DNA from: Pectobacterium polaris
GTDB lineage: Bacteria; Pseudomonadota; Gammaproteobacteria; Enterobacterales; Enterobacteriaceae
NCBI RefSeq assembly: GCF_002307355.1
Contig: NZ_CP017481.1
Span: forward strand, 4,588,001-4,652,000
DNA: 64,000 bases
Direction of reading: 5' to 3'
Positions 2,926 through 6,741 of the stretch are shown here, piece after piece. Under the pieces are notes generated by a model that was not told the DNA's origin, made no database searches, and saw only the letters and a program-made list of their open reading frames with translations. Both the position numbers and the translations under genes were made by a program. The first letter of the stretch is position 1. Each line of letters opens with the position of its first letter.

Positions 2926-4320
2926 ATGTCTCAATTTCCCTCCTCTGCAATTTTTACCGTTAGCCGCCTGAATCAGACGGTCAGACAACTGTTGGAAATG
3001 GAAATGGGCCAGATTTGGCTCTCCGGCGAAATCTCCAACCTCTCTCAGCCCTCATCCGGCCACTGGTATTTCACGCTAAAAGACGAACGTGCACAGGTAC
3101 GCTGCGCGATGTTTCGTACCAGCAACCGCAGAGTGACGTTCCGCCCACAAAACGGTCAGCAAGTGCTGATTCGTGCAACCATCACGCTATATGAACCTCG
3201 CGGCGACTATCAGCTACTGGCGGAAAGCATGCAGCCCGCTGGTGATGGCCTGCTACAGCAGCAGTTTGAACAGCTCAAGCAGCGCCTCGCTGCCGAAGGG
3301 TTGTTCGACCAACAGTTTAAGCAGGTTCTGCCCTCTCCCGCCAAGCAGGTCGGCGTGATTACGTCAGCCAGCGGTGCCGCCCTGCACGATATTTTGCAGG
3401 TGTTGCAGCGCCGCGATCCGTCACTGCCGGTGATCGTGTATCCCACGTCGGTGCAAGGTGCGGAAGCGCCGCTACAGATTGTTCGCGCTATTGAGCTGGC
3501 TAACCAGCGGGATGAGTGTGATGTGTTAATCGTCGGGCGCGGCGGCGGTTCGCTGGAAGATCTCTGGAGCTTTAATGACGAACGGGTCGCCCGCGCCATC
3601 TTCGCCAGCCGCATTCCTATCGTCAGCGCCGTCGGCCATGAAACTGATGTCACTATCGCCGATTTCGTCGGTGACCTGCGCGCGCCCACGCCGTCGGCTG
3701 CTGCCGAGTTAGTAAGTCGTAACCAACTTGAGCTATTGCGTCAGATACAGTCCCAGCGCCAGCGTCTGGAAATGGCGATGGATTATTACCTTGCCCAGCG
3801 CAATCGGGAATTTACCCGCCTGCACCACCGTTTACAGCAGCAGCATCCGCAGCTGCGACTGGCGCGTCAGCAGGCACAGCTGGTTAAACTGCGTCAGCGG
3901 TTGGATGACGCCATGCAGCAGCAGCTTCGGCAGACCTCGCGCCGAAGTGAACGCTTACAACAGCGTCTGATGCAACAGCAGCCGCAAACCCGTATTCATC
4001 GTGCGCAGCAGCGCTTGCAGCAGCTTAGCTATCAGATGCAAAGCGCAGTAGAACGTCAGTTGAATCAGAACAAGCAGAAGCTAGGCATCGCCTGTTCGCG
4101 ACTGGAAGGCGTTAGCCCGCTGGCGACGCTGGCGCGTGGCTATAACGTCACCACCGCCCCGGACGGTAAAGTGCTGAAAAACGTCGCGCAAATTTCCCCC
4201 GGCGAAACGCTGAAAACTCGTTTACAGGACGGCTGGGTAGAAAGTCAGGTCACGACACTGGCTCCGAATCAAAATTCCGCGAAAAAGCGGCGAAAACCCT
4301 CATCTCCGACGCAAAAATAA
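2926..4320 (+). CDS. xseA: Exodeoxyribonuclease VII large subunit
   Basis: Large subunit of ExoVII, which degrades single-stranded DNA from both ends to short oligonucleotides. It works with the small subunit XseB, which is not in this window. An in-frame TTG at 2911 would add five residues; the ATG at 2926 gives [20 protein letters not shown], matching the E. coli start, and is preferred (464 aa). The N-terminal OB-fold is at about 1-100, and a catalytic region carries the glycine-rich [10 protein letters not shown] motif near residue 205. A long Gln/Arg-rich coiled coil follows at about 270-390, and the C-terminal segment ends in a lysine-rich tail. It is monocistronic and divergent from guaB. 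Confidence 0.96.
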
Positions 4321-4341
4321 CGCGAACGGCATAAAATGCGT

Positions 4342-4381
4342 GAATGGGGATTTGTCCTAAAACAACGGCGATCCCCCATTC
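4342..4381 (+). terminator. Hairpin downstream of xseA
   Basis: The arms GAATGGGGAT and ATCCCCCATTC, with one bulged C, enclose a loop of about 19 nt. The hairpin begins about 20 nt after the xseA stop. No T-tract follows, so it may act as an mRNA-stabilising or weak termination structure rather than a strong intrinsic terminator. Confidence 0.5.
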
Positions 4382-4550
4382 TTACCCCCGCCATCTGAAC
4401 TATACTCATTCCCAGCTCACTAATTTATATTCACCGTTTTCACCGCACGGGTTATCAGCCTCTGCGCGGTGACGCGGATAGGATAAAAAGACAGTGAGCT
4501 TTGTTGATCGTCTGTGTTACCCCTGATGAGCGTTTTCAAGGAGATGAGGT

Positions 4551-5594
4551 ATGAAGTCCAGACCGATTTGTAGCGTGATCCCCCCTTACATTTTGCATCG
4601 CATTATCGCAAACGGCACAGACGAACAGCGCCACTGTGCGCAACAAACGCTGATGCACGTTCAGTCATTAATGGTCAGCCACCATCCGCGCCCGGAACCC
4701 CATGAGAAATTACCCGCCGGGCAGGCAAATCGCAGCATTCACGATGCCGAACAGCAGCAACAGTTGCCCGGCAAGCTGGTTCGCGCTGAAGGCCAACCCA
4801 GCAACGGTGATGTTGCCGTCGATGAGGCCTACAACTATCTGGGCGTAACCTATGATTTCTTCTGGAAGATTTTCCAACGTAACTCGCTGGACGCCGAGGG
4901 GCTATCGCTGGCTGGCACAGTACATTACGGTCAGGATTATCAGAACGCCTTCTGGAACGGGCAGCAGATGGTGTTCGGAGATGGCGACGGCAAAATCTTT
5001 AATCGCTTCACGATTGCGCTTGATGTGGTCGCACATGAACTCACTCACGGCATCACCGAAAATGAAGCAGGGCTAATTTATTTCCGCCAGTCCGGTGCGC
5101 TAAATGAATCGCTGTCCGATGTCTTTGGCTCCATGGTCAAGCAGTATCATTTGGGGCAAACCGCTGAGCAGGCCGATTGGCTTATCGGTGACAAGCTTCT
5201 GGCCGAGGGTATTCACGGCATGGGGCTGCGGTCAATGTCTCATCCGGGCACGGCGTATGATGATGAGCTGCTCGGTATCGACCCCCAACCCTCTCACATG
5301 AACGAGTATGTGAACACGCGTGAAGACAACGGCGGCGTACACTTGAATTCAGGTATCCCCAACCGGGCATTCTATCTCACAGCTATCGCGCTGGGCGGCC
5401 ATTCATGGGAAAAAGCCGGCCGCATCTGGTACGACACGCTGTGTGATAAAACGCTGCCGCAAAATGCGGATTTCGAAATTTTCGCGCGCCACACCATTCA
5501 ACATGCCGCTCAACGTTTTAACCACACCGTTGCCGATATCGTCATGCAATCGTGGGAAACGGTAGGCGTGGAGGTACGACAGGAGTTCTTATGA
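4551..5594 (+). CDS. prt1: Thermolysin-family (M4) zinc metalloprotease, Prt1/protealysin type
   Basis: A zinc endopeptidase of peptidase family M4 with 347 residues. The active site HELTH is at residues 162-166, and the third zinc ligand is Glu186 in NESLSDV. The catalytic-His region GGVHLNSG lies near residue 265. There is no classical signal peptide. Instead the N-terminus carries PPYILHRI at residues 11-18, the motif of the short propeptide in protealysin-type precursors of Serratia. A strong ribosome site (AAGGAGATGAGG) precedes the ATG. The protein resembles Prt1 described from soft-rot Erwinia. How such proteins leave the cell is not evident from the sequence. Its stop codon overlaps the start of the next gene, which looks like an inhibitor of this enzyme class. 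Confidence 0.92.
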   Translation: MKSRPICSVIPPYILHRIIANGTDEQRHCAQQTLMHVQSLMVSHHPRPEPHEKLPAGQANRSIHDAEQQQQLPGKLVRAEGQPSNGDVAVDEAYNYLGVTYDFFWKIFQRNSLDAEGLSLAGTVHYGQDYQNAFWNGQQMVFGDGDGKIFNRFTIALDVVAHELTHGITENEAGLIYFRQSGALNESLSDVFGSMVKQYHLGQTAEQADWLIGDKLLAEGIHGMGLRSMSHPGTAYDDELLGIDPQPSHMNEYVNTREDNGGVHLNSGIPNRAFYLTAIALGGHSWEKAGRIWYDTLCDKTLPQNADFEIFARHTIQHAAQRFNHTVADIVMQSWETVGVEVRQEFL

Positions 5595-5935
5595 AAACGC
5601 TGCCAGAGCTCAACGACGATGCCATCATTGAGCTAGCGCGTGAAGGGGGATTTGCCTTTATCCCCAAGCTGGCGGGGCCGCGACGTTTCGCGCTCGCCAG
5701 CGTACCGCCATCCGAACGGGAGCGGATTTGTAACGCGATCCGTAATGCCGCACCTCAGGCTCGCGAACCCGGTGAACCTGATGGCCCAGGGCGCGGCGAC
5801 CAGTTCTATTACCGCATCCACATCAGCTACTGCCAACCGCAGCAGAATCAATATACCGATATCATTCTGCTGATCCCCGAAGACCGCGCGCCGCCGGAGC
5901 TGACCGAGCTGTGGCGCAACGGCGTAGAGGAGTAA
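5591..5935 (+). CDS. Emfourin-like M4 protease inhibitor
   Basis: A small 114-residue protein. Its ATG at 5591 overlaps the protease stop in an ATGA tetranucleotide, with AGGAG just upstream, so translational coupling is expected. The reading frame is open upstream to 5552, but the ATG with the ribosome site is clearly better. It starts MKTLPELNDDAIIELAREGG. It has an acidic, proline-containing middle (residues about 58-68) and a beta-strand-rich C-terminal half (YYRIHISY, DIILLIPED). There is no signal peptide or membrane segment. In Serratia the gene after protealysin encodes emfourin, a protein inhibitor of M4 peptidases, in a two-gene operon. Position, length and the remembered start pattern fit that family. 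The assignment comes from context and recall, not an alignment. Confidence 0.75.
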   Translation: MKTLPELNDDAIIELAREGGFAFIPKLAGPRRFALASVPPSERERICNAIRNAAPQAREPGEPDGPGRGDQFYYRIHISYCQPQQNQYTDIILLIPEDRAPPELTELWRNGVEE

Positions 5936-5958
5936 CCATTGATTAAGTAATAATGAAT

Positions 5959-6183
5959 TTAATCGGCAGGCGCGTAGCTGAATGCGACTCGCCGTTTGGA
6001 AATCATCCCGTGCTGCTGGCAAAAATAATCCACCGCACCACAGGCTTTCAGTTCCTGAAGCGAGTGCTTACATTCAGGGCACGCAGCCTCACGCAGATAA
6101 TCCTGCTGGCAGGCAGTACACTGAAACCGCGCACCACTTTTCCAAGCTAGAGGATGACCACAGCTCGGGCAATTTGCTTCCAT
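5959..6183 (-). CDS. yfgJ: YfgJ-family zinc-ribbon protein
   Basis: A 74-residue protein with two zinc-ribbon units. CPSCGH and CTACQQ form one, CPECKH and the C-terminal CGAVDYFCQQHG form the other. The segment LKACGAVDYFC is typical of the E. coli YfgJ family, and yfgJ also lies between xseA and der in E. coli. The molecular function is unknown; small zinc ribbons often bind nucleic acid or protein. It starts 2 bp after the stop of the upstream cupin gene on the same strand, so the two are probably co-transcribed. Confidence 0.85.
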   Translation of the reverse strand: MEANCPSCGHPLAWKSGARFQCTACQQDYLREAACPECKHSLQELKACGAVDYFCQQHGMISKRRVAFSYAPAD

Positions 6184-6185
6184 AT

Positions 6186-6629
6186 TTATCCTCTCGTTTC
6201 ACCACGTTCAGGCAGCACATTTCTGTCCAATTCAGGCAGCATAACCACACTTTCCTGCTCGTTGGCGTCAGTGCGGGAAATCACCAACACGGCGACATCA
6301 TCACTGGGATTATAGGGTAAATGTGGGACGTTCTCAGGGATATAGAGGAAATTACCTTCGGGTAATTCAATCATGTTTTCAAGCTGTTCCCCGTAATACA
6401 CACAGGAAATACCGCTCAGCGCGTAAATCGCCGTTTCGTGATGCTCGTGCTTATGCGCCTTGCCTTGCGAACGCGGTGGAATCCACGCCAACTGCATATG
6501 AAGATGCTGGGCACCCACCGTCTCGCGTGAAATTCCAACCGAGTAAACCAAGCCTTGTTTGCCCTGATACTGGGTCTGCGGGGCAATCCGCTGGCAATAT
6601 ACGCCCCGCTCAGAATGCTTTGTTTTCAT
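6186..6629 (-). CDS. Cupin-domain protein
   Basis: A 147-residue single-domain cupin. The first cupin motif is visible as HKHEHHETAIYALSG with its metal-binding histidines and glutamate. The second is seen in EGNFLYIPENVPHLPYN. A GTG at 6632 precedes the ATG directly; the ATG is preferred. Cupins of this size include sugar-epimerase-like, dioxygenase-like and ligand-binding proteins, and no specific substrate can be read from the sequence. It is the upstream partner of yfgJ (2-bp gap). It is absent from this position in E. coli as I remember it. Confidence 0.75.
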   Translation of the reverse strand: MKTKHSERGVYCQRIAPQTQYQGKQGLVYSVGISRETVGAQHLHMQLAWIPPRSQGKAHKHEHHETAIYALSGISCVYYGEQLENMIELPEGNFLYIPENVPHLPYNPSDDVAVLVISRTDANEQESVVMLPELDRNVLPERGETRG

Positions 6630-6741
6630 CACTGCGCCTCAGGAAGAAGACTGTCCAAGAGTACGCTATCAAATTCCTGTTCTGTCAGCCAAAAGGCAAG
6701 ACGTAAGACTCTGTCACTTACTGCAACAGAAGCCAACAGCG

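What the first reader, a model, noticed from the sequence alone, without database searches (positions are those of the whole stretch)
4551..5935. Protease and putative protease inhibitor encoded with overlapping stop and start codons
The M4 protease has a protealysin-type PPYxxxRI propeptide motif and no export signal. The next gene, coupled by ATGA, looks like emfourin, the inhibitor known from Serratia. A plant pathogen making an M4 protease together with its own cytoplasmic inhibitor suggests controlled activation or self-protection, and Prt1 has usually been described alone.
Basis: partly seen in the sequence, partly recalled or inferred. Interest (0 to 1): 0.7.

Follow-up and report, generated by a model that had tools for sequence, protein, structure and literature searches.

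The report
Protease with its own inhibitor gene
A soft-rot bacterium carries a protein-cutting enzyme gene overlapping the gene for a small protein that very probably blocks that enzyme; the pair is a known kind, but comparing genomes ties together two separately named versions and shows a relative that kept the enzyme and lost most of the blocker.

Summary
Window 4551-5594 encodes a 347-aa protealysin-type M4 protease (three Pfam matches above cut-off). 5591-5935 encodes a 114-aa emfourin (PF20242, 85.5 bits against a cut-off of 27; one solved relative, 6zyg). They overlap by four bases, ATGA. The protease is the only Peptidase_M4_C match in the genome. In the genus, the protease propeptide family is found in 25 of 25 genomes and emfourin in 24 of 25; all 24 show the same overlap.

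This is a known kind of operon. The Serratia pair is published, and public records already name several Pectobacterium proteins 'protealysin inhibitor emfourin'.

Three additions are worth keeping. (1) The Pseudomonas pair published as RhpP/RhpC is, by a fingerprint of lengths and residue numbers, the same kind; its paper says Pectobacterium lacks the partner, which these genomes contradict. (2) Pectobacterium fontis keeps an intact protease but most of its inhibitor gene is gone. (3) Two database proteins carry protease and emfourin in one chain.

Inhibition by the Pectobacterium protein is inferred from homology, not shown.

The parts
4538..4543 (+). Shine-Dalgarno-like AAGGAG, 7 nt before the protease ATG
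   Evidence: sequence; fully conserved columns in the 16-sequence upstream alignment
4551..5594 (+). protealysin-type M4 metalloprotease, 347 aa
   Evidence: PF16485 76.7 bits, PF01447 107.4, PF02868 182.9; 2vqx 534.7 bits
4581..4604 (+). propeptide motif PPYILHRI (residues 11-18)
   Evidence: translation; PLN_propep match at residues 7-48
5034..5048 (+). HELTH zinc-binding/catalytic motif (residues 162-166); further checked residues E186, H264, D259, Y177
   Evidence: the seven checked positions (H162, E163, H166, E186, H264, D259, Y177) are identical in 81 of 81 aligned proteases; residue roles recalled from thermolysin
5581..5585 (+). Shine-Dalgarno-like AGGAG for the second gene, inside the protease coding end
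   Evidence: sequence
5591..5594 (+). ATGA overlap of protease stop and emfourin start
   Evidence: -4 spacing in 24 of 24 genus loci L002-L025
5591..5935 (+). emfourin (M4in) homologue, 114 aa
   Evidence: PF20242 85.5 bits; 6zyg 125.9 bits, residues 1-111

Best explanation
This is the Pectobacterium version of the protealysin-emfourin operon. One transcript most likely makes a leaderless M4 protease and, directly after it, its own cytoplasmic inhibitor. Emfourin would bind the protease one to one at the active-site region and keep it inactive inside the cell. The protease would act when it outlives, outnumbers or leaves its inhibitor (release by lysis, vesicles or an unknown export route). 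Shown here: the identity of both genes, the conserved overlap, the conserved pairing, the intact catalytic residues, and that this is the only Peptidase_M4_C match in the genome. Inferred: co-transcription, binding, inhibition, and when release happens.
For: Pfam and PDB matches. One emfourin match and one M4_C match in the genome, both here. Pairing: emfourin in 24 of 25 and protease propeptide in 25 of 25 genus genomes; in a 345-genome order sample 15 have emfourin and 17 the propeptide, and all 15 are among the 17, on the same contig and strand about 1 kb apart. Both genes under purifying selection: median omega 0.041 (protease) and 0.137 (emfourin) over 55 pairs of 11 sequences each. Homologue experiments: emfourin binds protealysin 1:1 at the active-site region, and deleting only the emfourin gene lowers FtsZ and brings an earlier fall in culture density in Serratia (PMC9505478, passages); RhpP alone harms Psph and E. 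coli growth, a change of His279 abolishes this, and RhpC suppresses it in E. coli (PMC6490944).
Against: Inhibition by this protein is untested. Pectobacterium fontis and (in a draft genome) Lonsdalea britannica keep open proteases with a broken emfourin gene, so the inhibitor is not strictly needed everywhere. G200 and G308, two genomes of one genus, carry related proteases without an emfourin match. No sigma-70-like promoter was found in 4280-6250 by the simple scan. Of 80 named loci, 6 have no neighbouring emfourin by my profile.
Confidence: 0.87

Rival explanations
1. The small protein is mainly an escort, as proposed for RhpC: it keeps the protease inactive in the cytoplasm and is needed for its move to the periplasm. 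This is compatible with inhibition and would explain how a protease without a visible signal leaves the cytoplasm.
For: In Psph, RhpP reached the periplasm only when RhpC was present, and gspD and gspE mutations did not block this (PMC6490944, passages). The pair described there (356 aa, H176, H180, E200, H279; 99 aa; 20 bp gap) is matched by L159, whose 99-aa protein is PF20242 at 73.3 bits. A review table lists Prt1 as not secreted in rich medium and its secretion as induced by gelatin.
Against: RhpC-type and Pectobacterium emfourins are very distant (no BLASTP match; 18% identity in the profile alignment), so the escort role may not carry over. P. fontis keeps the protease without an intact partner.
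Confidence: 0.3
2. The pair is a toxin-immunity module for competition with other bacteria: the protease is delivered to neighbours and emfourin protects kin.
For: Proposed for Serratia because protealysin cleaves FtsZ and RecA and the inhibitor shares its operon (PMC9505478, passages).
Against: The neighbours are exonuclease VII large subunit, a zinc-ribbon protein, a cupin, a membrane transporter and an EngA-type GTPase, with no secretion-system gene among them. The pair sits at one spot in nearly all genus genomes, unlike typical variable immunity loci (recalled). No delivery was tested, and the rest of the genome was not searched for secretion systems.
Confidence: 0.1
3. The emfourin acts on another protease, or on proteases from outside, and its place beside the M4 gene is incidental.
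For: Emfourin of Serratia is described as an inhibitor of protealysin and also of thermolysin, so it is not specific to one enzyme.
Against: No other M4_C match in the genome. The pairing is seen from Pectobacterium to Streptomyces, cyanobacteria and Chloroflexota, and two proteins join both domains in one chain.
Confidence: 0.03

Closest known systems
Protealysin-emfourin operon (pln-m4in) of Serratia proteamaculans
   Same: Protease and inhibitor genes in one operon (passages); these two proteins are closest, among solved structures, to 2vqx (listed as METALLOPROTEINASE, recalled as protealysin) and 6zyg ('Protealysin-associated protein').
   Different: Different genus and a plant-associated host; no activity data for the Pectobacterium pair; the Serratia gene order and spacing were not compared here.
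RhpP-RhpC (rhpPC) of Pseudomonas savastanoi pv. phaseolicola
   Same: M4 protease without a detected signal peptide, small partner directly downstream that suppresses its toxicity. L159, with the printed fingerprint, has a protease 44% identical to this one over 352 residues and a PF20242 partner.
   Different: Partner is 99 aa, and the L159 equivalent has no BLASTP match to this emfourin; genes are separated by 20 bp rather than overlapping; the L159 protease has PPYMLERM but no PLN_propep match at E 0.001.
Prt1 of Pectobacterium carotovorum EC14
   Same: Same genus and M4 family; Prt1 is counted among protealysin-like proteases (PMC6778150, passages).

Membership tests
Emfourin (PF20242) | Match above the curated Pfam cut-off | tested here: met
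   85.5 bits against 27
Emfourin (PF20242) | Homology to the solved prototype 6zyg | tested here: met
   E 1.2e-35 over residues 1-111
Emfourin (PF20242) | Gene beside an M4 protease gene | tested here: met
   4-base overlap
Emfourin (PF20242) | Tight inhibition of M4 proteases | not testable with these tools
   needs purified proteins
Protealysin-like M4 proteases | Protealysin propeptide with PPY motif | tested here: met
   PF16485 76.7 bits against 28.1; PPYILHRI
Protealysin-like M4 proteases | HExxH plus downstream Glu and catalytic His | tested here: met
   seven checked positions identical in 81 of 81
Protealysin-like M4 proteases | No classical signal peptide | tested here: inconclusive
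   hydropathy only, maximum 1.45; no signal-peptide program at hand
Protealysin-like M4 proteases | Autocatalytic propeptide removal | not testable with these tools
   needs protein
RhpPC | M4 protease followed by a small PF20242 partner | tested here: met
   this pair; L159 with the RhpPC fingerprint; the Psph sequence itself was not obtained, so that RhpC is PF20242 is an inference
RhpPC | Partner needed for movement to the periplasm | not testable with these tools
   needs fractionation
Secreted toxin-immunity pairs | Delivery system coded beside the pair | tested here: not met
   Pfam of five neighbouring proteins shows none; delivery by a system coded elsewhere not tested

The most novel reading that the evidence does not exclude
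Emfourin and RhpC are one family of double-role partners: inhibitor and export escort. In soft-rot bacteria the emfourin would then be what lets the leaderless Prt1-type protease leave the cytoplasm, and P. fontis, which has lost most of its emfourin gene but kept an intact protease, would hold its protease inside the cell or keep it silent.
Probability: 0.2. Interest if true: 0.6.

Novelty: already known. Interest (0 to 1): 0.32.

Why it matters
The pair itself is known, so the gain is in joining two bodies of work. Emfourin (Serratia) and RhpC (Pseudomonas) appear to be one family under two names, one called an inhibitor and one a chaperone. A published statement that Pectobacterium lacks the partner looks like a limit of BLAST. 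Work on Prt1 as a free secreted protease may need to include its inhibitor. The naturally broken inhibitor gene in P. fontis makes it possible to ask whether the inhibitor is needed for self-protection.

Tried and rejected
A simple promoter scan of 4280-6250 found no sigma-70-like site (1.3 expected by chance) and five terminator-like sites, all on the minus strand; not pursued. NCBIfam gave no emfourin match and two matches far below cut-off for the protease. Plasmid records: one emfourin-like match, in a Klebsiella aerogenes record, not followed. The EC14 Prt1 paper is not held. I looked for Psph RhpC by a protein search with a 17-row, mostly Pseudomonas, emfourin alignment; no P. savastanoi or P. 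syringae name is shown among the 120 listed of 370 (many rows carry no name or a cut one). I therefore used a fingerprint of printed lengths and residue numbers in unnamed Pseudomonas-type genomes. Fifty-one loci were examined (L124, the 30 best, and 20 that I picked by small size or weak score). In 50 of the 51 an HExxH-bearing ORF of protease length lies on the emfourin's strand (pattern match, not Pfam); L174 shows none in its 2001 fetched bases. L159, L162 and L164 have a 356-aa start option with H176, E200, H279 and a 99-aa partner option, at gaps of 21, 30 and 41 bp; L166 has the same residue numbers in a 355-aa option (gap 24); the other loci of that type have 355- or 357-aa options. 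No structure was predicted: 6zyg made it unnecessary for the window, and L159-type proteins come from a source the prediction tool does not list. The upstream alignment covers 16 of 25 candidate sequences, because 9 loci lay on the other strand and the script skipped them. The 80 named loci are the best 80 of 137 relatives, so they lean to close relatives. In the class sample of 369 genomes, 8 have an emfourin match at E 0.001, of which 3 exceed the cut-off, and 11 have a propeptide match, of which 2 exceed it; the genome with emfourin but no propeptide match over the cut-off (G683) still has a Pfam-confirmed M4 protease next to it. Six of the 78 emfourin pieces also match DUF6438 (PF20033, best 6.7e-06), not followed. 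The control set of 14 well-known genomes rings for emfourin in one, Methanosarcina acetivorans. On rechecking I withdrew one idea: L105 looked split, but both pieces lie in one open frame.

Full report
What is there. Window 4551-5594 codes for a 347-residue protein and 5591-5935 for a 114-residue protein on the same strand; the stop of the first and the start of the second share ATGA at 5591-5594. Each start has a Shine-Dalgarno-like stretch (4538-4543, 5581-5585). The first protein matches the protealysin propeptide (PF16485), the M4 catalytic domain (PF01447) and the M4 helical domain (PF02868), all above cut-off; the second matches Emfourin (PF20242) with 85.5 bits against a cut-off of 27 and nothing else at E 1. 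Among solved structures the protease is closest to 2vqx (534.7 bits, listed as METALLOPROTEINASE; that this is protealysin is recalled), and the small protein has one match, 6zyg 'Protealysin-associated protein' (125.9 bits).

Which organism. 

Is it more than chance. Seven catalytic or zinc-site positions are identical in 81 of 81 aligned proteases (window plus 80 named loci). Among 11 Pectobacterium sequences the median dN/dS over 55 pairs is 0.041 for the protease and 0.137 for emfourin, so both are kept as proteins. The genome has one emfourin match and one M4_C match, both here, so the neighbour is the only candidate M4 target found inside the cell.

How general is the pair. In 25 genomes of the genus (own included) the propeptide family is found in 25 and emfourin in 24; all 24 show the 4-base overlap (L002-L025). 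In a sample of 345 genomes of the order, 15 have emfourin and 17 the propeptide; all 15 are among the 17, with both matches on one contig and strand about 1 kb apart. In this sample every match is in the window's own family (29 genomes of it listed: 15 with emfourin, 17 with the propeptide). In 80 named loci around protease relatives (the best 80 of 137) an iterated profile finds emfourin-like sequence within the fetched flanks in 74, counting the broken L055 and L061; of 78 pieces scanned (77 from these loci plus the window) 76 match PF20242 and 6 match DUF6438. In L078 it lies upstream of the protease, in L085 on the other strand. The six without are five Frankia and one Actinomadura; a Pfam search of three of these genomes (L081, L084, L088) finds an emfourin match somewhere in each. 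Two proteins, P0134 and P0141, carry propeptide, both M4 domains and emfourin in one chain. P0141 is filed under a plant, probably a bacterial contaminant, and either could come from an indel or sequencing error at an overlap.

The site. Among the 24 genus loci, xseA is found upstream in 23 and yfgJ downstream in 23, within flanks of about 1.5 kb (L010 lacks the first, L013 the second). In the window the neighbours are exonuclease VII large subunit, a zinc-ribbon protein, a cupin, a membrane transporter (PF03547) and an EngA-type GTPase. In E. coli K-12 xseA and yfgJ overlap by 4 bases with nothing between, so the pair occupies a spot that is empty there. Whether it was gained or lost was not tested.

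Broken inhibitor genes. In Pectobacterium fontis M022 (L061; its contig length equals that of G014:C49, L038) the protease is full-length and 93% identical, with all seven positions intact, and its ribosome-binding region is kept. Its emfourin gene keeps the ATGA start and about the first 28-34 codons and then lacks roughly 240 bp. A whole-genome Pfam search finds no emfourin in this genome (G014; G382). The protease's omega values against 13 relatives, 0.032-0.061, are like those of the window's protease against others (0.033-0.057). In Lonsdalea britannica (L055) emfourin similarity is split over three frames while the protease is open; this is a draft genome and may hold sequencing errors. 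Two genomes of one unnamed genus (G200, G308) carry related proteases and no emfourin match; G308 has two full-length copies and a propeptide-only ORF in tandem between a coproporphyrinogen oxidase gene and an EngA-type gene. So the inhibitor is usual but not indispensable. Recent loss, a silent protease, or export could each explain this.

What is known. The Serratia work (passages read) reports that protealysin and emfourin genes form one operon, that emfourin binds protealysin 1:1 at the active-site region, and that deleting emfourin alone lowers FtsZ. NCBI-derived names already call several Pectobacterium proteins 'protealysin inhibitor emfourin' (P0001 and others; a few are still 'hypothetical protein').

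The link to RhpPC. A PLoS Pathogens paper (PMC6490944: outline with abstract, passages, and sections 6, 7, 13, 15 and 29 read) describes RhpP, a 356-aa M4 protease, and RhpC, a 99-aa protein 20 bp downstream that suppresses RhpP toxicity and is needed for its move to the periplasm. I did not have the Psph sequences. In a sample of 298 genomes of the genus of L073 (Pseudomonas) 89 have an emfourin match over the cut-off. L159 has a 356-aa protease start option with H176, E200 and H279, the numbers printed for RhpP, and a 99-aa ORF 21 bp downstream; L162 and L164 have the same numbers with gaps of 30 and 41 bp. The 99-aa proteins of L159 and L162 match PF20242 with 73.3 and 73.0 bits, profile comparison of the L159 protein with the emfourin alignment gives probability 98%, and the L159 and L162 proteases are 44% and 43% identical to the window's over 352 residues. 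BLASTP gives no match between these two 99-aa proteins and the window's emfourin at E 10. [quoted passage not shown] 24 of 25 genus genomes contradict this, and the BLASTP blindness would explain it, since the paper used BlastP. In the held library 'emfourin' occurs in 2 papers and 'RhpP' together with 'RhpC' in 2 others, so none of these four uses both names; papers outside this library were not searched.

How it most likely works. Protease and inhibitor are made together; the inhibitor keeps the protease inactive in the cytoplasm. How the protease later becomes active or leaves the cell is not known. A review table lists Prt1 as not secreted in rich medium and its secretion as induced by gelatin. 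The escort role proposed for RhpC would fill that gap but is untested for emfourins of this type.

Noticed in passing
L061 4035-4142 (Pectobacterium fontis M022) and L038: Emfourin gene reduced to about its first 28-34 codons, start overlap kept, protease intact; the remnant still has the near-invariant R-x-G-G stretch.
   Followed up: partly
L055 4034-4370 (Lonsdalea britannica): Emfourin similarity spread over three reading frames beside an open protease gene; draft genome.
   Followed up: partly
P0134, P0141: Protease and emfourin domains in a single predicted chain (449 and 438 aa), possible natural fusions or artefacts.
   Followed up: partly
L121 1740-4542 (G308): Tandem protealysin-like proteases, two full-length and one propeptide-only ORF, no emfourin in that genome.
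   Followed up: partly
window 4343-4351 and 4371-4380: Inverted repeat just after xseA (AATGGGGAT / ATCCCCCATT); in P. fontis both arms differ and still pair, by eye; perhaps the end of the xseA transcript.
   Followed up: no
window 6186-6632 (minus strand): 148-aa cupin (PF07883) between yfgJ and the transporter gene; the transporter match begins at +2107 in the window and +2092 in L039 but at about +1490 to +1600 in the other full-flank Pectobacterium loci (+1346 in L061), so this gene seems present only in some.
   Followed up: no
proteases of L002-L037 and L039-L118: The fourth residue of the HExxH motif varies between T, A, S, V and G among relatives, while the seven checked positions are fixed.
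   Followed up: no
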